Shown here in pieces: positions 1-8,118 of a DNA stretch of 57,207 nucleotides. The notes under the pieces were generated by a model. That model was not told the DNA's origin and made no database searches. It was given only the letters and a program-made list of their open reading frames with translations. Every line of letters begins with the position of its first letter. Positions within the stretch are counted from its first letter, which is position 1. Source of the stretch: an uncultured cyanobacterium (GTDB lineage Bacteria; Cyanobacteriota; Cyanobacteriia; PCC-6307; Cyanobiaceae); NCBI GenBank assembly GCA_903858015.1, contig CAIOGZ010000020.1:1-57207 (forward strand), written 5' to 3'. The translations under genes and the position numbers were made by a program.

Positions 1-2
1 CG

Positions 3-443
3 GCCACCACGCTCAACCCCACCACGGGCGCGGTGACCAACGCGGGCACGCAGCCGCTTGCCACCTACATCGCGTCGCCGAATGTCCCGAACTCGGCGCC
101 GAACTGGTGCCCGCCGCAGTTCAGCGCGGCGCAGTGCGCCAGGGTCCCCACGAACTCGCCGCTCAACTACACCGGAAATGTGAGCAGTGTGGGCCAGGCG
201 CTGACGCGCTCGCCGTGGGGCACCCTTGACCAGGGCGGCAACGTGGTGGAAATCACCGACACCATCGCCCCGCCGCCGGCCGCCGGCAACAACAAGATCG
301 TGTGGCGCCGCTGGCATGGTGGCGTGGTCACCGCCACCGCGTACCAGATGTGGATCTCGGCGGTCGGTGTGACGCCGCAGACCATCCCCGGTTACGGCAT
401 CAACCCGTTCCGCGGGTTCCGCGTCGGGGTCCTCGGGCGCTGA
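3..443 (+). CDS. C-terminal part of a sulfatase-modifying-factor (FGE-sulfatase) family protein, cut by window edge
   Basis: The frame is open from the first bases of the window, so the gene starts upstream; about 146 codons are visible before a TGA at 441-443. The motifs GTLDQGGNVVEITD, WRRWHGG and FRGFRVG are the degenerate counterparts of the family signature (GNVWEW, LRGGSW, GFRV). This is the layout of exported SUMF1-like proteins of planctomycetes and cyanobacteria. The two active-site cysteines of true formylglycine-generating enzyme are not visible, so an enzymatic role is not supported. It is distinct in sequence from the two FGE-domain proteins at 3-7 kb. A sorting signal could have been expected at the C-terminus but none is evident. 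Family assignment is fairly likely; function is unknown. Confidence 0.6.
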   Translation, partial: ATTLNPTTGAVTNAGTQPLATYIASPNVPNSAPNWCPPQFSAAQCARVPTNSPLNYTGNVSSVGQALTRSPWGTLDQGGNVVEITDTIAPPPAAGNNKIVWRRWHGGVVTATAYQMWISAVGVTPQTIPGYGINPFRGFRVGVLGR

Positions 444-920
444 TGTCCTCGGCTGCCCCACGGGTATCTGACGGGGGTCGGGTTCGAGTATCACCGGCCC
501 ATCCGGGTCACCACTCGCTGGTGTCACCTATTGATTGGAAACTCAGGTGTAATAGGGCCTGCAATGGTGGGAACCAACTGCATCACCGCACGCAGGTGAC
601 ATGGATGGACTGAAAGCGATGAATGCCATAATTCTTGTCGGCCGCCACAGTTCTAGGGCTGCCGTGAATTAATGAAACCCGACCATTTTCCTGTCGTGAC
701 ACAAGTGCAAATTTCTGTCAACAACATTATCCCTTCATGTTATTGGAAGTGATAATCTCTTTGCGGTTATACGCTGGCTTATGCTCTTCCCTGGCCAGTG
801 CCCACCAAGTCAGTGAACCTTCAAAATCGGAGCCGAAATCGGCTGCCGCTTGGCCAGTGGTGCTCGCCGCGCCGCAGCAGCTCGAATGGCTTGCTCTTGT
901 AAGACGTTCGCAGTGGTGCC
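444..920. other. Intergenic stretch with no supported gene
   Basis: Open frames here are short, lack family motifs and differ in base composition from neighbouring genes. The stretch 600-800 is relatively AT-rich, which suggests decayed or imported DNA. I see no tRNA, repeat or clear promoter. Confidence 0.5.
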
Positions 921-995
921 ATGGATGCCCTGCTGACGCTCTCCTCCAAGGCCCAGCTGGTGATTCCCGCCCGGATGCGCCAGCTGCTGGGGTAG
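921..995 (+). pseudogene. AbrB/MazE-type antitoxin N-terminal stub
   Basis: An ATG opens a 24-codon frame with the start of a SpoVT-AbrB swapped-hairpin domain: LTLSSKAQLVIPARMRQLLG matches the family pattern (sskGQitiPaeiRk.Lg). It then meets TAG at 993-995. Functional members run 70-90 residues, so this is a truncated antitoxin. No partner toxin follows. The identification rests on about 20 residues and is therefore moderate. Confidence 0.5.
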
Positions 996-1310
996 CGAGT
1001 GATGGACTATTGAAGAACGAATTCATCGATGCCGAGGGTGCCGGTATCCCCTTTTTTCCATCACAACTTTACCTTCTGGGCTGGTCCAAAGCCATGCCAA
1101 CTGACTTAGTAGAATCCAGGGAAATCCCCATATAAAGCGTTGGATGCCCAAGGAATATGCATATTCTTCTTCCCAATCCGCCCCCATGGGGTGATGGTAT
1201 TGAGTAGTATTTTTTAGGCTGGAAAACATCGTCAGCGATAAATTTCCTCTATACAATCTATCCTAATGCGTGACGATTTATTTATCAAGTCTCTCGTTCG
1301 ATGCTGCACT
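996..1310. other. Intergenic, no supported gene
   Basis: AT-richer than the flanks, with several stop codons in all frames. It lies between the AbrB stub and the IS1182-like fragment. No recognisable motif. Confidence 0.45.
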
Positions 1311-1413
1311 AGGAGCCTGTCGCACGTAGCCCCGGCCTCCCGCTTCTCCCAAGCAGCCCTCAAATCTGCCCAGATCCCAGTGACAGCAATGGATCTGGGC
1401 GTGAGAATGGGTC

Positions 1414-1842
1414 ATGAGCAAGCCTAAAACCTTCCGTCCCTGGAACCCGGAGCAGACCCTGCTGCTTCCGCCTTCGCCGGTGGAGTGGCTGTCGGCAAAC
1501 CATCTGGTGTTTTTCCTGCTCGACCTGGCCGCAGAGCCGGAACTCTCGGCGATTGATGCGGTCTACGCGGCGAGGGATCGGCGCGGGGTCAAGGCCTATG
1601 AGCCGCGGACGATGGTGATGCTGCTTTTGTACGCCTACTGCGTCGGCATCCCCTCCTCCCGCCGGATCGAGCTGGCCTGCTGGGAAGATGCCGCCTTCCA
1701 CGTGCTCATCGGCAATCAACAGCCCGACCACAGCCGGATCAGTGATTTCCGCCTCGTTCATCTCGATGCATTGGCAGGCCTGTGTGTGCAGGTGCTGCGG
1801 CTGTGCCAGAAGGCAGGCCTGGTGAGCCTGGTGGGCGTGTAG
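1414..1842 (+). pseudogene. IS1182-family transposase, N-terminal fragment
   Basis: The 142-residue product begins MSKPKTFRPWNPEQTLLLPP and carries the DUF772-type N-terminal domain typical of IS1182 (IS5-like DDE) transposases, including the segment YEPRTMVMLLLYAYCVGIPSSR. Family members are roughly 450-500 residues with a DDE catalytic core; here the frame stops after GLVSL, where the catalytic half should begin, so it is inactive. A possible left end of the element is the sequence GGAGCCTGTCGCAC near 1313, but the right end is missing. The break abuts the drmC-like remnant on the other strand, which suggests the fragment arrived in, or recombined into, an older defence locus. Confidence 0.75.
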
Positions 1843-1904
1843 TTCAGACGCCGCAGATCAGTAGCAACGGCCCGCAATGTCTGAGCTGGCAGCGTGAGGC
1901 TCAT
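1843..1904 (-). pseudogene. Possible drmC (phospholipase D-like DISARM protein) N-terminal stub
   Basis: On the minus strand an ATG at 1904 overlaps the original TGA of the drmB-like remnant as ATGA and opens MSLTLPAQTLRAVATDLRRL, which continues for a few residues until the IS1182 fragment. In DISARM loci drmC directly follows drmB, and this stub is in the right place with the tight spacing expected of an operon. The amino-acid evidence alone is weak because only about 20-25 residues remain. Treat the name as an inference from position. Confidence 0.3.
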
Positions 1905-2385
1905 GCGTTGATGAACTCCCAGAAGGAGGGATCACCGAATTCAGGATTGGCCGAAACGGTGGGGCTGACCAGGGCTAGATCAAGGAACTAATTGCGGATC
2001 TCGTACTAGATCTCGGCGATCAATTCACAGCCATGGCAGGCGGCGCCATGGGTGGGCCGGATTTCGAAAGGGTGGATCGGGTCGTGTTCTGAGCAGAAAG
2101 GATCATTGATGCAGAGCTGGCCGCGCTCAAATGCTTTCTCCAGGTAGGCAACGATCCGCTTGCCGGCACCCACCAGGCCGCCAAGCGTTCCCTCCGATCC
2201 GGAGCTGTTGGTGAACAGCAGAATGCCACAACTGATCTCGCTGTAGGCGTAGATGCGCTCGCGAATCGAGCTGGATCCATAGGCGCATTCCCAAGCCATC
2301 TCGGTGATCAGCAGGTGGCTTAGGCTGTGGAGCAGGAGTTGGGGTCGGCGACGATTAGGTAGGCGGGTCCGCCTATGTAGTTGAC
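1901..2385 (-). pseudogene. drmB-like (DUF1998) C-terminal remnant with in-frame stops
   Basis: Read on the minus strand, this is the C-terminal DUF1998 domain. It shows LLLHSLSHLLITEMAWECAY, then GILLFTNSSGSEGTLGGLV, then CINDPFCSEHDP and HGAACHGCELIAE, which are the Cys-rich signatures of DrmB-type proteins. Two TAG codons (2006-2008 and 1988-1990) interrupt an otherwise collinear frame that runs on through NPEFGDPSFWEFINA to the ancestral TGA at 1901-1903. A further frameshift near 2345 separates the upstream piece YIGGPAYLIVAD. DrmB belongs to the DISARM anti-phage system and to related helicase loci. Only the last ~160 of >600 residues remain, fused to the vapC fragment upstream. Clearly dead. 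Confidence 0.7.
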
Positions 2386-2511
2386 ACCAGGCAGGCTGAT
2401 CAACAAGGCCTTTGCTGCGCCGGCGGAGAGAAAGGCCGGGACTCTTGGGGTTCCGGGCTCCCGGATCAGCAGGGGCACCAGCAGCGAGGTGTCCAAGTAG
2501 CAGGCCATCAA
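2386..2511 (-). pseudogene. VapC-like PIN-domain toxin, N-terminal fragment
   Basis: Starts MMACYLDTSLLVPLLIREPG; the Asp in YLDTS is the first acidic residue of PIN-domain RNases. About 42 residues of toxin remain before the frame enters the drmB-like remnant (YIGGPAYLIVAD). Functional VapC proteins have about 130 residues and three further acidic residues, so this one is inactive. Its start overlaps the stop of the upstream antitoxin by four bases, the normal arrangement for such pairs. Confidence 0.6.
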
Positions 2512-2705
2512 TAGCGGGCAGCGCGGCGCAGCTCAGCCATGAAGCTGCCGGCATCCGGCCCTTCATGCATCGGTTGGGTGTTGGTGAACTGGAACAGCTC
2601 CTGCAGATCGAATCCGTCGCTAAGGCGAGCTGGTTCGGCCACGATCCTGGCGATGGCCACCCCTCGTCGTGTGATGACCACCTCAGCCACGCTGATTCGA
2701 TGCAC
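2508..2705 (-). pseudogene. Phd/YefM-type antitoxin with internal deletion
   Basis: The 65-residue product starts MHRISVAE and jumps straight to VVITRRGVAIARIVAEP. In intact Phd/YefM antitoxins about 20 residues forming the DNA-binding fold lie between these two segments, so the N-terminal domain carries an in-frame deletion. The C-terminal toxin-binding tail appears present. It overlaps the vapC fragment start (ATGA-type). With both partners damaged, the pair is a dead toxin-antitoxin locus. Confidence 0.5.
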
Positions 2706-2989
2706 CAGGGGGACATGAAGAGTTGGTCAGATGACCACGATAAGCACCGCCCGGCCTTTCTGACTCCCCGAAGGCGTGCAGAACAACACCCGCTGCTGCC
2801 TGCTGGAGCTAATCCGCACAATTCCGCCATGCAGCACTACCCCGGCATCAGGCGGATGGGGCAGTTCAGGGTTTCTGGCAGGGCCCCATCGGATGGTGGC
2901 GGCCCTCGCATCAGTAGGCCTTACCTGCTGCCCTAACCTCACCACCAGAATCCCGCCGCACCGTAACGGCCCGCGCCTGGCGGCATGCG

Positions 2990-4513
2990 ATGACCCCTCC
3001 CCCAGAACGCGATCAGCTGTTCATCAGCTACAGCCATGTCGATCGGCAGTGGGTGGAGCGGCTGCAGACGATGATTCGGCCGCTGGTGCGCAGCCATGGC
3101 CTGCGTCTCTGGGACGACTCCCAGATCCAACCCGGGGACAAGTGGAGGCAAGAGATCGAAACGGCGCTGGCTGCCGCGAAGGTGGCGCTGCTGCTGGTGA
3201 GCTCGGATTTTCTGGCTTCTGAGTTTGTGACCAACTCGGAATTGCCGCAGCTGCTGACGGTGGCAGAGGAGGAAGGACTGCGCATCCTGTGGGTGCCCCT
3301 GCGGCCCAGCCTTGTCAGGCGCACGCCGATCGGTGCGTATCAGGCTCTGGGGGATCCGGGCCGGCCTCTGGCGCGCATGGACCCTGTGGAACAGGAGGAG
3401 GCGCTGGTGGAGATCGCCCTGGCTATCGAGAAGGCGCTCGCAGCCCGCCACGATTCGCCACCAGGAGCAGGGGCGAAAACACAGGGCGACAGTGCCGGAA
3501 GACCTCGGCAGGCTGCTGCCCCCAGGAGCGGTTCATCGGTTCTTGCCGGCGCTGAGCGGCAGGCCGTTGCAACGGACCGCTCAGGAGCGGCCCAGCCCGA
3601 GATGGCCCAGCCCGAGACAGCGGAGCTAGCTCCTGAGACCATTCCCCTGCAGCGCTTCCCCACCAGCACCTGCCTGTTGCGCGAGGAGGGTGGCCGCTGG
3701 AGCATGGAGCGGCGCCCGCTGCAGGTGGAGGGCTACCGGGAGGTGTTGGGCGGGGGGTTGGCTCTCACCATGGTGAAGATTCCGGCGGGCAGCTTTCGGA
3801 TGGGCTCTCCTGGGGACGAGCCAGACCGATCAGACGATGAAGGCCCCCAGCACGAAGTGACCCTGGGATCTTTCTTCTTGGCGCAAACACCGATCACCCA
3901 GGCCCAGTGGCGGGCGGTGGCGGGTTGGCAGAAGCTGGGGCGCGACCTGGAGCCCGATCCATCGAGGTTCAAGGGCGCGAACCGCCCGGTGGAGCAGGTG
4001 AGCTGGTTTGATGCGCTGGAGTTCTGCCGCCGCCTGAACCAGCGCACGGGTCAGAGTTACGGCCTGCCGAGCGAAGCCCAGTGGGAATATGCCTGCCGTG
4101 CCGGCAGCACCACACCGTTCCATTTCGGGGCCACGCTGACGCCGGAGCTGGCCAACTACGATGGCAATCACGTTTATGGAAACGGCCCCAAGGGCACTTA
4201 TCGCGAGCAGACCATCGACGTGGCCAGCTTCCCGGCCAATGGCTGGGGCCTGCACGACATGCACGGCAATGTGTGGGAGTGGTGCGAAGACCACTGGCAT
4301 GACAGTTACAACTTCGCCCCTGGCGATGACCAACCCTGGTTGATTCCTGCTGCCGCTGATGATGAACGAAGGCTGCTGCGCGGCGGCTCCTGGGTCGGCA
4401 ACCCCAGGTTCTGCCGCTCGGCCTGCCGCGACCACGTTCAGCCCGGCCTTGCCAGCCTCAACGTCGGTTTCCGTGTGGTCTGCCTCCCCCAGGACCCTTC
4501 CCTTAACCCTTAA
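2990..4513 (+). CDS. TIR domain - FGE-sulfatase/C-type-lectin-like fusion, DGR target
   Basis: 507 residues. Residues ~7-150 form a TIR domain: DQLFISYSHVDRQWVERL, then LRLWDDSQIQPGDKW, then LLLVSSDFLASEF followed by TNSELPQLL, whose Glu fits the catalytic position of TIR NADases. A low-complexity linker leads to an FGE-sulfatase domain (~250-500) with MVKIPAGSFRMGSPGDE, PITQAQWRAVAGW, PVEQVSWFDALEFCRRLN, LPSEAQWEYACRAGS, GLHDMHGNVWEWCEDHW and LLRGGSW. The first active-site Cys of true FGE is absent, so a ligand-binding rather than enzymatic role is more likely. Residues 469-491 are the variable region described separately. TIR proteins commonly consume NAD+ on activation; that role here is inferred. 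No signal peptide is seen, so it should be cytoplasmic. ATG at 2990 is the first start compatible with the TIR fold, though its ribosome-binding site is weak. Confidence 0.9.
   Translation: MTPPPERDQLFISYSHVDRQWVERLQTMIRPLVRSHGLRLWDDSQIQPGDKWRQEIETALAAAKVALLLVSSDFLASEFVTNSELPQLLTVAEEEGLRILWVPLRPSLVRRTPIGAYQALGDPGRPLARMDPVEQEEALVEIALAIEKALAARHDSPPGAGAKTQGDSAGRPRQAAAPRSGSSVLAGAERQAVATDRSGAAQPEMAQPETAELAPETIPLQRFPTSTCLLREEGGRWSMERRPLQVEGYREVLGGGLALTMVKIPAGSFRMGSPGDEPDRSDDEGPQHEVTLGSFFLAQTPITQAQWRAVAGWQKLGRDLEPDPSRFKGANRPVEQVSWFDALEFCRRLNQRTGQSYGLPSEAQWEYACRAGSTTPFHFGATLTPELANYDGNHVYGNGPKGTYREQTIDVASFPANGWGLHDMHGNVWEWCEDHWHDSYNFAPGDDQPWLIPAAADDERRLLRGGSWVGNPRFCRSACRDHVQPGLASLNVGFRVVCLPQDPSLNP
4370..4492 (+). 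other. DGR variable region VR1 (3' end of TIR-FGE gene)
   Basis: The end of the FGE domain, from LLRGGSW to GFRVVCLPQ. Aligned without gaps to the equivalent end of the RES-FGE gene, the 69-nt core 4394-4462 differs at 20 positions in 14 of 23 codons. All 20 changes are at first or second codon positions; none of the 23 third positions differ. In 17 of 20 one copy has A, and the other three are also explained if the template had A. Flanks on both sides are identical for 20 bases or more. Upstream of the VR the same two genes differ mainly at third positions (for instance around HGNVWEW), so the pattern is specific to this segment. Confidence 0.85.
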
Positions 4514-4734
4514 ACCCTTAATCCCTCAACACTCGGCTGTTTTTTAACTCTGGCTGTTGGCTGTTGCGAGTCGCGCCGTAGGCGCCGGCGATTTTTAGAT
4601 CTCTCTCCGAGTCTCCACTAGCAAGATCCCAGCCAAACGTTCCTGCTGCGAAGCCCGACTTGATCTGATCCGCCGGCAGGGGCCCATCTCCCCCAAACCC
4701 ATTAGCCTGAGATCACTCGCTTCGCAGGGCTCCC

Positions 4735-5051
4735 ATGCTCACCCTGCCTCGCTCGCTCAGCCTCACCCTGCCTCGCTCGCTCAGCCTCACCCCAGATCAG
4801 TTCGCGCAGGTGTGTGCCGCCAAATTGGTATTCCAGCTGCAGTCCTGGGCCCGAACCGTCGACGGCTGGAGCGTTGGCGCGCCCTGAGCGAGGCTGAAAG
4901 GGAAGGCTTCCCGCCCCTCTGCCCGGATCTGGTGGTGGAGCTGGCCAGCCCGTCGGTTCAGCTGGAGCCGTTGCGGCACAAGATGGCGTCGTACATCAGC
5001 AATGGAGCGCGGCTGGGCTTGCATTTGGTTGCCATCACCACACCATTGTGA
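4735..5051 (+). pseudogene. Uma2-family (DUF820) endonuclease remnant, copy 1
   Basis: Starts MLTLPRSLSLT like the related gene at 7101, but the first 24 bases are tandemly duplicated. The frame then runs into an internal deletion that removes the segment corresponding to the first catalytic acidic residues. In a second frame the distal half remains: RWRALSEAEREGFPPLCPD followed by LVVELASPS and LRHKMASYISNGARLG. Uma2 proteins are PD-(D/E)XK-fold nucleases of ~190 residues that are very abundant in cyanobacteria. This one is broken. It sits between the TIR-FGE gene and the antitoxin gene, mirroring the position of copy 2 after the RES-FGE gene, so gene plus 3' flank seem to have been duplicated together. 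Confidence 0.75.
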
Positions 5052-5078
5052 AATCGATTCCAGTGCCATAGTGGAGAG

Positions 5079-5423
5079 ATGGCCCGCTCAGCTGAATCCA
5101 CCACCGAGGCGAATGCCAGTGTCAGTGGCACTGCCATTACCACTGCCAGTTCCACCGTCGCGGCGGCAGGCGATCTGGATTCAGTGAGAGAGGGCGCAGC
5201 CGTGCCGGCCGTGGAAAGCAGACTGATCAAGCAGGTGGAGCTGCTGCTGCGTGAGTCGGGCAATACCGAACCGTTCGATGCCGCTGCCTGGATGGAGCGC
5301 TGGTTGCACCGCCCCAACCATGCCCTCGGCGGCGCCGCCCCCGAGCTCTACCTGCAGACCCCACAAGGCGAGGCCTTGCTTTCCAACTTGATCGGCGCGA
5401 TGGCGGCGGGCTCCTACATGTGA
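5079..5423 (+). CDS. MbcA/ParS/Xre-type antitoxin (toxin-binding domain, DUF2384)
   Basis: 114 residues. The N-terminal ~50 residues are low-complexity (Ala/Ser/Thr). The C-terminal half has the antitoxin toxin-binding signature: FDAAAWMERWLHRPNHALGG, then APELYLQTPQGEALLSNLIG, ending AAGSYM. In RES-Xre systems this domain caps the RES active site. A typical Xre helix-turn-helix is not evident, so this is the short MbcA/ParS-like form or a truncated Xre. A purine-rich GGAGAG directly precedes the ATG. The next gene begins 10 bases after the stop and encodes the RES protein, the normal antitoxin-toxin order, so the two are almost certainly co-transcribed. Confidence 0.8.
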   Translation: MARSAESTTEANASVSGTAITTASSTVAAAGDLDSVREGAAVPAVESRLIKQVELLLRESGNTEPFDAAAWMERWLHRPNHALGGAAPELYLQTPQGEALLSNLIGAMAAGSYM

Positions 5424-5433
5424 TGCGGCGGCG

Positions 5434-6837
5434 GTGAGCGGGGAGATCAGCATCTGGCGCATCGCCAGTCAGGGCCTCACCTGGAAGGCGAACGACCTCA
5501 GCGGCAACGGCTCCGCCCGCTATCCGGGGCGCTGGAACTCCCTCAATCGCCCCATCGTTTACAGCTCCAGCTCGATCGCCCTGGCCTGCCTGGAAACGGT
5601 GGTGCATCTGGCCGGCGATGATCCGCTGCCATTTCCGCGCCAGCTGGTGCGGATCACCATTCCCAGCCACCACTGGCAGCAGCGCAGGATGTTTGCCAAC
5701 GAGGAGTTCAGCGGCTGGGGCAGCGCCCCCACCCCTGAGCACGCCGAGGATTGGCTTGCGGCCACCCGGGCCTGGGGCGATGCCTGGCTGTTGGGCCTCG
5801 AATCGCTGCTCGCCGAGGTGCCTTCGGTGATCGTGCCGGAGGAAACCAACCTGCTGCTCAATCCCCTCCACCCAGCCCACGGGGAGCTGAAGGCCGAGAT
5901 TGTGCGCCCCTGGGTCTACGACGCCCGTCTGCTTCCCAACGCCCTGGCCGCGACTGCCCGAACCGCGACCGCCCGAGCCGGCACCCCCCAAGCGGGCCCG
6001 CCCTGGCAAGAGCCCCTTGGCGCTGAGCTGGCCCTGGAGATGGTGCCGATCCCGGCTGGGGACTTTCTCATGGGCTCCCCTGAAGACGAACCAGGGCGGA
6101 TGGGCAATGAAGGCCCGCAGCATCGGGTGCGCCTGACGCCCTTCTCCCTGGCCCGCACGCCAATCACCCAGGCCCAGTGGCGACAAGTGGCGAGCTGGCA
6201 GCCGGCGCCAGGCGACCCTCCCTGGGAACGTCAATTGAATCCAGACCCTTCCTTCTTCAAGGGCGATTTGCCCGTGGTGAATCGGCGTCCCGAGCACGAT
6301 CGGCGGCCCGTGGAGCGGGTGAGCTGGTTTGATGCCCAGGAGTTTTGCCGCCGCCTGAGCCGGCGCACGGGCCGCACATACACCTTGCCCAGTGAAAGCC
6401 AGTGGGAATATGCCTGCCGAGCGGGTACAACCACGCCCTATGCCTTTGGAACCACCCTCAGCCAGTGGCAGGCGAATGTTGCCGGTTCAGGCACCACGGA
6501 AGTGGGTAGTTTTCCCGCCAACGCCTGGGGTCTGCACGATATGCATGGCAATGTGTGGGAATGGTGCCTCGATCACTGGCATCACGGTTATGAAGGAGCG
6601 CCAGCGGATGGCAGTGCCTGGTTGAGCACTGCGGAGCAGCAGAATCAATCGTCCACCAAGCCAGTGAAGGGGCTCATCGATGATTTAGAATCAAGGCTGC
6701 TGCGCGGCGGCTCCTGGGACAGCATCCCCGGGTACTGCCGCTCGGCCTACCGCTTCCGCAATCGGCCCGGCAATGCCTACGGCTTCGTCGGTTTCCGTGT
6801 GGTCTGCCTCCCCCAGGGCCCTTCCCTCAACCCTTAA
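5434..6837 (+). CDS. RES domain toxin - FGE-sulfatase/C-type-lectin-like fusion, DGR target
   Basis: 467 residues from a GTG start 10 bases after the antitoxin stop; the TGATG overlap is out of frame. Residues 5-165 are a RES domain: WRIAS, GSARYPGRWNSLNRPIVYSS, ALACLETVVHL, EVPSVIVPEETNLLLNPLHP, YDARLL. The conserved Arg, Tyr, Glu and Ser of NAD+-degrading RES toxins (MbcT/ParT type) have counterparts. A short Ala/Arg linker leads to an FGE-sulfatase domain (~190-460): MVPIPAGDFLMGSPEDEPG, PITQAQWRQVASWQP, PVERVSWFDAQEFCRRLS, LPSESQWEYACRAGT, GLHDMHGNVWEWCLDHW, LLRGGSW. Residues 429-451 are the variable region. RES toxins are normally ~150-200 residues, so the lectin-like C-terminus is an added module, probably a sensor. 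Its FGE domain is the close paralogue of that at 3.7-4.5 kb. Confidence 0.88.
   Translation: MSGEISIWRIASQGLTWKANDLSGNGSARYPGRWNSLNRPIVYSSSSIALACLETVVHLAGDDPLPFPRQLVRITIPSHHWQQRRMFANEEFSGWGSAPTPEHAEDWLAATRAWGDAWLLGLESLLAEVPSVIVPEETNLLLNPLHPAHGELKAEIVRPWVYDARLLPNALAATARTATARAGTPQAGPPWQEPLGAELALEMVPIPAGDFLMGSPEDEPGRMGNEGPQHRVRLTPFSLARTPITQAQWRQVASWQPAPGDPPWERQLNPDPSFFKGDLPVVNRRPEHDRRPVERVSWFDAQEFCRRLSRRTGRTYTLPSESQWEYACRAGTTTPYAFGTTLSQWQANVAGSGTTEVGSFPANAWGLHDMHGNVWEWCLDHWHHGYEGAPADGSAWLSTAEQQNQSSTKPVKGLIDDLESRLLRGGSWDSIPGYCRSAYRFRNRPGNAYGFVGFRVVCLPQGPSLNP
6694..6816 (+). other. DGR variable region VR2 (3' end of RES-FGE gene)
   Basis: Counterpart of VR1, core 6718-6786. It starts after GGSW and ends before GFRVVCLPQ. 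Variable codons end in the same third base as in VR1 (C in ten, G in two, T in two), as expected if the template carried mostly AAC and AAT codons. The unchanged CGTGTGGTCTGCCTCCCCCA stretch at the 3' side is GC-rich and sits where an initiation-of-mutagenic-homing site would be expected. No template repeat with multiple AAC codons and this context occurs elsewhere in the window. Confidence 0.85.
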
Positions 6838-7100
6838 TCCATCAATCCCTCAACACTCGGCTGTTTCTTAACCCTGGCTGTTGGTTTGCGGCTGTTGTGC
6901 TTTGGCTGTCGTGCTTTGTCTGTTCCGGGATGGGGCCTTAGGCGCCGGCGATCGTTCTGCCTCTCCGCCTGCATCTCCCCTCCACCAGCCAGTCCACAAC
7001 CGAACTCCCCTGCTTCGAGGCCCGTCTCGATCTGATCCGCCGCCAATGCCCCATCTTCCTGAATCCCTTTACTTGAACTCACCCATCCCGCAGGGCCCCC

Positions 7101-7713
7101 ATGCTCACCCTGCCCCGCACACTCAGCCTCACTCCTTCCCAGTTCGCGCAGGTGTGTGCGGCCAACCCTGAGGCGGTGCTTGAGCTCGCAGCCGATGGCA
7201 CCCTCATCGAGATGACCCCCATCGGTGGAGCCTCCGGTGCCCGCAACCAGACCCTCGGAGCCCTGCTCTGGCTGGCGATCGAGCAGAGCCGCCTGCCGCT
7301 GAAGCTGTTCGACAGCTCCACGGGCTTCCTGCTCCCCGTAGCCGCAAGGCTTCTCCGAAGGAGTTGGCTCCGTGCGCAGCCCCGACGCCAGCGTGGTGCG
7401 GCTGGATCGTTGGCAGGCGTTGAGCAAGGCCGAGCGGGAGGGCTTTGCGCCCTTGTGCCCGGATCTCGTGGTGGAGCTGGCCAGCCCTGCCGATGAGCCG
7501 CAGACCCTGCGTCACAATCTGGCTGCCTACAAGGCCAATGGGGCGCGTCTCGGCTGGCTGTTGCTGCCGCAAAGCCGCACGGTGGAAATATGGCAGATAG
7601 GGACAGCCGAAACAGCCAACTCTCCCCTGGTGCTCAACGATCCAAACCGGTTGGAGGCGGGCCTGGAGTTCCCCGGCCTGGTGATTGATCCGCGCCGGAT
7701 CTGGGAGATCTGA
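7101..7713 (+). pseudogene. Uma2-family (DUF820) endonuclease, frameshifted copy 2
   Basis: The frame from ATG 7101 gives LSLTPSQFAQVCAANPEAVL, IEMTPIGGASGARNQTLGAL and FDSSTGFLLP. It then leaves register at 7338. The matching continuation is in the next frame: SPDASVVRLDRWQALSKAER, FAPLCPDLVVELASPADEP, LRHNLAAYKANGARLGWLLL, LDPRRIWEI-like end. Between them sits about 27 extra bases containing CTTCTCCGAAGGAG, a small palindrome; a net gain of 25 bases explains the +1 shift. Apart from this insertion the protein would be a full-length ~195-residue Uma2 nuclease with its PD...ELAS catalytic motif. It follows the RES-FGE gene by ~260 bases of flank similar to that after the TIR-FGE gene. Confidence 0.8.
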
Positions 7714-7929
7714 GAACGGCGCTCCCGGTCGGCGTCGGCGCTGTTGGCTTGCGGCCGGTGGCTATTGGATTCAGGGATGGCGGCTTTGGCGCTTTGATTC
7801 ACCGGGCCCACACCGGCAGGCGGGCCAGCAAGGAATTGGTGGAAGCGGGCGGAGCGGAGGAAGCAGCAGCGTCCATCCGTCCCTGGCAGCCAGAAGCGGT
7901 AGAATTGCTTTCTACGTCCCTGGGGTCGT

Positions 7930-8118
7930 ATCGGTGTCAACATCAAGAGTCCCCGGGTTGACGAGCTGATCGGCCAGCTGCGCCAGCTCACCGGGCGCGG
8001 CGCCACCGAGATCGTGCGCGAGGCTCTGGAGGAGGAATTGCGGCGGCAGCGCCGGCTGCAGCGCATCGAGCGGCTGCGCCAGCAGCTGCCCGCCCTGCAG
8101 CAGCAGGCCGGGGCCTAG
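7930..8118 (+). CDS. VapB/PSK-type antitoxin, no canonical start codon
   Basis: The frame ending at TAG 8116-8118 reads GVNIKSPRVDELIGQLRQLT, GATEIVREALEEEL and then an Arg/Gln-rich tail. This is the PSK-type ribbon-helix-helix antitoxin family that partners PIN toxins. Upstream the frame is closed by TAG at 7900-7902, and between that stop and the conserved sequence there is no ATG, GTG or TTG. The best-placed codon is ATC at 7930, with GGGG four bases before it. Either a rare ATC start is used or the ATG has mutated and the antitoxin is poorly expressed or dead. The PIN toxin gene follows 50 bases downstream. Confidence 0.6.
   Translation: MGVNIKSPRVDELIGQLRQLTGRGATEIVREALEEELRRQRRLQRIERLRQQLPALQQQAGA

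What the first reader, a model, noticed from the sequence alone, without database searches (positions are those of the whole stretch)
1843..2385. DISARM-like remnant: drmB end plus probable drmC start, cut by an IS1182 fragment
The DUF1998 C-terminus (GSEGTLGGLV, HGAACHGC) is recognisable across two TAG codons. It ends in an ATGA overlap with a frame in drmC position, truncated at the transposase fragment. It shows that a DISARM-type defence system once stood here.
Basis: partly seen in the sequence, partly recalled or inferred. Interest (0 to 1): 0.55.

Follow-up and report, generated by a model that had tools for sequence, protein, structure and literature searches.

The report
Broken remnant of a DISARM operon
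A 517-base scrap of a bacterial anti-phage system (DISARM) survives in a cyanobacterial genome, wedged between a broken jumping gene and a broken toxin-like gene; it is a real but ordinary genetic fossil.

Summary
Confirmed. Window 1828-2344 (minus strand) is the last 148 codons of drmB (stop included), then the first 25 codons of drmC, joined by the operon's ATGA stop/start overlap. The best DrmB model hits at E 3e-27; the drmC start is 25/25 identical to that of a Cyanobium relative with a full-length drmC. Two in-frame TAG codons lie after the DUF1998 (MZB) motif. Relatives carry drmA-drmB-drmC, and at least 5 of 17 named loci have a DrmMI-type methylase upstream, so the parent was class-1-like DISARM. 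The left edge is a break inside an IS1182-family element with 4-bp microhomology, not a plain insertion. The right edge is a 49-bp near-palindromic repeat, then a truncated PIN-domain gene. Searches of this draft genome (99.93% complete) found no drmA of this lineage, no other drmB and no other drmC. Changes in the relic show relaxed constraint. A different DISARM lineage left only the start of drmA (contig C38), while an ARMADA-like set reads open as far as its contigs go (C99/C73). Whether a whole operon stood exactly here, or a dead piece was brought in, is not settled. Fossil of a known defence system; low interest.

The parts
1901..2344 (-). drmB 3' end: last 148 codons including the stop, DUF1998/MZB motif uninterrupted; in-frame TAG at 2006-2008 and 1988-1990; own stop at 1901-1903
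1828..1904 (-). drmC 5' end: ATG at 1904, 25 codons, ATGA overlap with drmB
1309..1831 (+). 5' part of an IS1182-family element; transposase frame 1414-1842 keeps about 139 residues of the transposase and then runs into drmC antisense; 92% identical (1304-1831) to the longer copy at G000:C81
1828..1831 (.). CTGG, 4 bp shared by both parents at the IS/drmC junction
2345..2393 (.). 49-bp near-palindromic repeat between the drmB relic and the PIN-domain gene relic
2395..2508 (-). N-terminal piece (about 38 codons) of a PIN-domain, VapC-like gene whose longer copy is in G001:C42; ends approximate; the piece itself has no Pfam hit, the G001 copy hits PIN

Best explanation
A pseudogene remnant of a class-1-like DISARM operon of the Cyanobium/Synechococcus lineage. 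Ancestrally (inferred from the relatives and from published DISARM work) the helicase DrmA and the DUF1998 protein DrmB form a complex that loads on incoming phage DNA, the methylase marks self DNA, and the PLD protein DrmC is an accessory nuclease. In this genome drmA, about the first three quarters of drmB and about nine tenths of drmC are gone. Shown: what remains, its edges and the stops. Inferred: one deletion joined the inside of an IS1182-family element to drmC at a 4-bp microhomology, another event joined drmB to the 49-bp repeat inside a PIN-domain gene, and the piece now drifts without function. How the piece came to lie at this very spot is left open (first rival).
For: DrmB models hit (best E 3e-27). 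drmC start 25/25 identical to L051 and ATGA kept in L050, L051 and L052. DNA identity 86% to G040 over 1828-2344, 85% to G035 and 83% to G025 over 1828-2338, all three with an open drmB of 632 aa. drmA-drmB-drmC in relatives; DrmMI upstream in 5 loci. In the own genome: no second drmB, no drmA of this lineage, no further drmC. Relaxed constraint: changes private to the window are 9 non-synonymous or stop against 12 synonymous, versus 2 against 37 summed over three relatives; Fisher p 0.0007. Sharp junctions.
Against: Pairwise dN/dS of the relic against the relatives is still only 0.08-0.10 (0.01-0.03 among the relatives), so most of the divergence built up under constraint and decay must be recent. 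The changes were not polarised with an outgroup, the comparison of private changes is not symmetrical (window against three, each relative against the other three), and one of the three relatives, L052, has a damaged operon itself although its drmB is open. The assembly is a draft in 100 contigs, so a missing piece in a gap cannot be wholly excluded.
Confidence: 0.93

Rival explanations
1. A variant of the best explanation rather than its opposite: the DISARM scrap was carried here already dead by recombination between repeats; no whole DISARM operon ever stood at this locus.
For: Both edges are mobile or repeated DNA (IS1182-family fragment left, 49-bp repeat right). In G001 the same TIR-FGE protein and PIN-domain gene are followed by a cytosine methyltransferase, not by DISARM. 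Against the five lineage-A DISARM loci with full or partial operons near the match, window 1-2900 matches only within 1828-2350, apart from a 30-bp stretch of the repeat in L052.
Against: The drmB/drmC junction is kept in its native state; mosaic loss in place by successive deletions is common in defence islands (recalled, from no call).
Confidence: 0.3
2. Assembly chimera.
For: Draft assembly in 100 contigs; the piece lies 1.8 kb from a contig end; IS copies are classic misjoin points.
Against: Outside the window itself the best match in the genus search is 86% (its list is cut at the weak end), there is no second drmB in the genome to be mixed in, and it bears stops of its own.
Confidence: 0.03
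3. The DUF1998 motif belongs to another YprA-type system (ARMADA, Druantia, MrfA) and not to DISARM.
For: DUF1998 is shared by all of these (PMC12458937, passages), and the own genome has such a helicase at C99/C73.
Against: The fragment's four PADLOC hits are all DrmB models while the C73 protein's seven hits are DruE models; drmC follows directly.
Confidence: 0.01
4. The residual frame (first internal ATG at 2299, to the TAG at 2006-2008) is still translated as a stand-alone DUF1998 mini-protein with a function.
For: The MZB motif is uninterrupted and pairwise dN/dS is low.
Against: Changes private to the relic are shifted to non-synonymous and the partner drmA of this lineage is absent. One search lists other short DrmB matches in relatives; they were not examined one by one.
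Confidence: 0.02

Closest known systems
   Same: drmB C-terminus, ATGA overlap and drmC start; 86%, 85% and 83% DNA identity to G040, G035 and G025
   Different: They keep drmA, full drmB and drmC (G025 with a gap in drmA and a broken drmC, G035 cut by the contig end in drmA), and L060, L061, L062, L064 and L065 a DrmMI-type methylase; here only 517 bp are left, with two stops
DISARM on Synechococcus elongatus IITB7 plasmid NZ_CP143860.1 (drmA, DUF1998 protein and drmC annotated)
   Same: Same gene order; 68% DNA identity at the DUF1998 end
   Different: Full-length genes on a plasmid; no methylase among the 10 features listed in the 16.7 kb shown
ARMADA (YprA + BrxHII-like + PglX-like), PMC12458937 (passages read)
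   Same: DUF1998 domain
   Different: DUF1998 fused to the helicase (passages); in this genome that is a separate locus (C99/C73)

Membership tests
DISARM | drmB with DUF1998/MZB domain | tested here: met
   PADLOC DrmB E 3e-27, positions 479-586 of a 606-position model; MZB over cut-off; only the last quarter remains
DISARM | drmC (PLD family) directly downstream | tested here: met
   25 codons at the right place, identical to the start of the 265-aa drmC in L051; L051 DrmC hits DrmC models and PLDc_2; the PLD domain itself is lost here
DISARM | drmA helicase | tested here: not met
   Own-genome searches with two DrmA proteins find only a different-lineage N-terminal piece at C38 and a weak match to the YprA helicase at C99. 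Hence a relic, not a working member
DISARM | operon DNA methyltransferase (DrmMI/DrmMII) | tested here: not met
   DrmMI model hits in the own genome are the ARMADA-like gene at C73 (two stretches) and a weak hit at C51, E 4.9e-4; DrmMI is present in 5 named relatives' loci; DrmMII was not searched genome-wide
DISARM | class-1 helicase drmD | not tested
   The relatives' loci end inside the methylase gene, so drmD was not looked for; hence 'class-1-like'
IS1182 family | transposase with N-terminal DUF772 | tested here: met
   DUF772; one of three plasmid hits is annotated IS1182-like; 3' part missing

The most novel reading that the evidence does not exclude
This genome has dropped two different DISARM lineages (relics at C20 and C38) while keeping an ARMADA-like YprA system, which could reflect redundancy or conflict between YprA-type systems, i.e. 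replacement rather than random decay.
Probability: 0.15. Interest if true: 0.4.

Novelty: new member of a known kind. Interest (0 to 1): 0.15.

Why it matters
It documents turnover of DISARM in picocyanobacteria at base-pair resolution and warns that DUF1998 hits in such genomes may be relics. It does not change how DISARM is understood.

Tried and rejected
A DNA search in plasmids gave three records, among them the S. elongatus relative. Rfam on window 1-5000 found nothing at the gathering score. A repeat scan of 400-1400 found nothing. Ideas rejected: ARMADA/Druantia origin of the DUF1998 piece (and the drmC junction); the DrmA piece at C38 as the missing part of this operon (75-77% identical to lineage B in L037-L039, 37% to L036, 25-30% to lineage A; 34% over other stretches); 'DISARM without methylase' as a new variant (first suggested by L034, L050 and L053; dropped because DrmMI lies upstream in L060, L061, L062, L064 and L065). 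Papers: DISARM with cyanobacteria and drmB (4 papers), with gene names (6), with pseudogene terms (1, unrelated, listing only), with Cyanobium (0). No print record of this relic was seen in those four searches; most subscription papers are not covered. Of PMC12458937, PMC9142583 and PMC9716671 only passages were read; the last reports incomplete DISARM genes (drmMII and drmD) in an Antarctic Synechococcus-like organism.

Full report
Observation. On the minus strand the window encodes ...LLLHSLSHLLITEMAWEC...GSEGTLGGLVGAGKRIVAYLEKAF...THGAACHGCELIAEI, followed by two TAG codons in frame and a final TGA. hmmscan against PADLOC gives four families, all DrmB, best E 3e-27; Pfam gives MZB (DUF1998), 34.2 bits over a cut-off of 24.2. 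The genome search with the DrmB model reports the place as 1967-2335 minus with 2 TAG. This is far beyond chance. The window is the whole of contig C20 of a draft genome of 100 contigs, 99.93% complete.

The drmC start. The drmB stop TGA overlaps an ATG (ATGA, 1904-1901), and the new frame reads MSLTLPAQTLRAVATDLRRLNYTPT. L051's DrmC hits DrmC models (E 2.4e-128) and PLDc_2. Searching the own genome with it gives one hit, window 1818-1904.

Relatives. Of 149 genomes searched, the own one included, 37 have a DrmB match. Over 1828-2344 the window is 86% identical to G040, and over 1828-2338 85% to G035 and 83% to G025. In genome contigs 17 distinct loci encode a relative of the L051 DrmB. All 17 also show DrmA homology (whole or partial) and 14 of 17 DrmC (misses: L068, L071, L074). 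In 5 of these 17 (L060, L061, L062, L064, L065) an ORF upstream of drmA, cut by the edge of the locus, hits DrmMI; the other 12 were not scanned with methylase HMMs, and drmD was not looked for. So the parent was class-1-like DISARM. Not every relative is intact: in L052/L072 (G025) drmA lacks its middle and drmC is in two frames, in L037 drmA is in two pieces, and L071 and L074 show broken drmA. A Fic-type gene stands near drmA in five genomes (L034/L067, L035, L036, L052/L072, L073; Pfam Fic tested on L034 only).

Edges. Matches to IS copies across the genus often begin at about 1309 and end at 1831 (list cut at the weak end); the copy at G000:C81 is 92% identical over 1304-1831 and there the transposase frame goes on. 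drmC homology starts at 1828. CTGG (1828-1831) is shared by both parents. So a break inside the IS meets drmC, and no drmC remainder was found elsewhere. On the right, drmB alignments stop between 2334 and 2350, at 2344 with the closest relative, and a 49-bp repeat (2345-2393) follows; the full pattern occurs four times in 3 of 42 genus genomes: G000 twice, G023 and G032. Then comes the start of a PIN-domain gene that is longer in G001 (Pfam PIN E 8.5e-6; the window's piece alone has no Pfam hit). The neighbouring TIR-FGE protein is 84% identical to its G001 homologue, where a cytosine methyltransferase stands instead of DISARM.

Decay. Among codons where three relatives (L050, L051, L052, all with an open drmB) agree, the window has 12 synonymous, 7 non-synonymous and 2 stop changes. 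The matching private changes in L050, L051 and L052 are 6:0, 18:1 and 13:1 (synonymous:non-synonymous); pooled Fisher p 0.0007. Pairwise dN/dS is 0.08-0.10 against the window and 0.01-0.03 among the three. I infer that the gene was lost late on its branch. The differences were not polarised with an outgroup, the comparison is not symmetrical, and the counts are small.

Rest of the genome. No other DrmB, and no lineage-A DrmA: the hits are C38:139-624 and, weakly, the YprA helicase at C99. The C38 piece is the start of a different-lineage DrmA (75-77% identical to L037-L039, in-frame TGA), its homology ending about C38:142, close to the contig end. C99 and C73 carry a YprA-type helicase, an SNF2-type helicase and a methylase that runs off the contig end. 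PMC12458937 (passages) describes this order, YprA first, as the usual one of ARMADA type I and says that many cyanobacteria have the reverse.

Mechanism. The relic itself most likely does nothing (inference). What a working system does is taken from PMC9142583 (passages): DrmAB is recruited to DNA with a 5' overhang, methylation lowers its ATPase activity, DrmC appears non-essential.

Verdict.

Noticed in passing
L031 (G000:C38) 142-624, minus: Start of a second DrmA from a different DISARM lineage, with an in-frame TGA, its homology ending near the contig end; no matching drmB found in the genome.
   Followed up: partly
L033 (G000:C99) 433-4413 and L032 (G000:C73) 2-8108: ARMADA type I-like set: YprA-type helicase with DUF1998 and a DUF559 end, SNF2 helicase, DrmMI/PglX-like methylase that runs off the contig end; the end of C99 and the start of C73 read the same residues.
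   Followed up: partly
window 507-543: A single copy of the CRISPR-type repeat whose array fills the start of contig C44 (50 copies in the first 4 kb, spacing 72-79 bp); the only copy found in the window.
   Followed up: partly
window 2345-2393: 49-bp near-palindromic repeat with variable centre, also in G000:C6, G023, G032 and looser copies in G021, G011 and G025 loci; may be the paired ends of a small mobile element.
   Followed up: partly
window 2990-4513 and L058 14-1540: TIR domain fused to an FGE-sulfatase (SUMF1-like) domain, 84% identical in G001.
   Followed up: partly
L034 13708-15039; also L035, L036, L052/L072, L073: A Fic-type gene stands near drmA in DISARM loci of five genomes, including L036, whose DrmA is nearer to lineage B.
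   Followed up: partly
L052/L072 (G025:C33): Another DISARM operon in decay: drmB open, but drmA lacks about its residues 498-733 and drmC is in two frames.
   Followed up: no
L061 2571-4439: A GmrSD (DUF262-type) restriction gene sits between drmMI and drmA.
   Followed up: no
window 1-141: First 141 bases are 100% identical to G000:C2:30178-30318, a repeat at the contig end.
   Followed up: no
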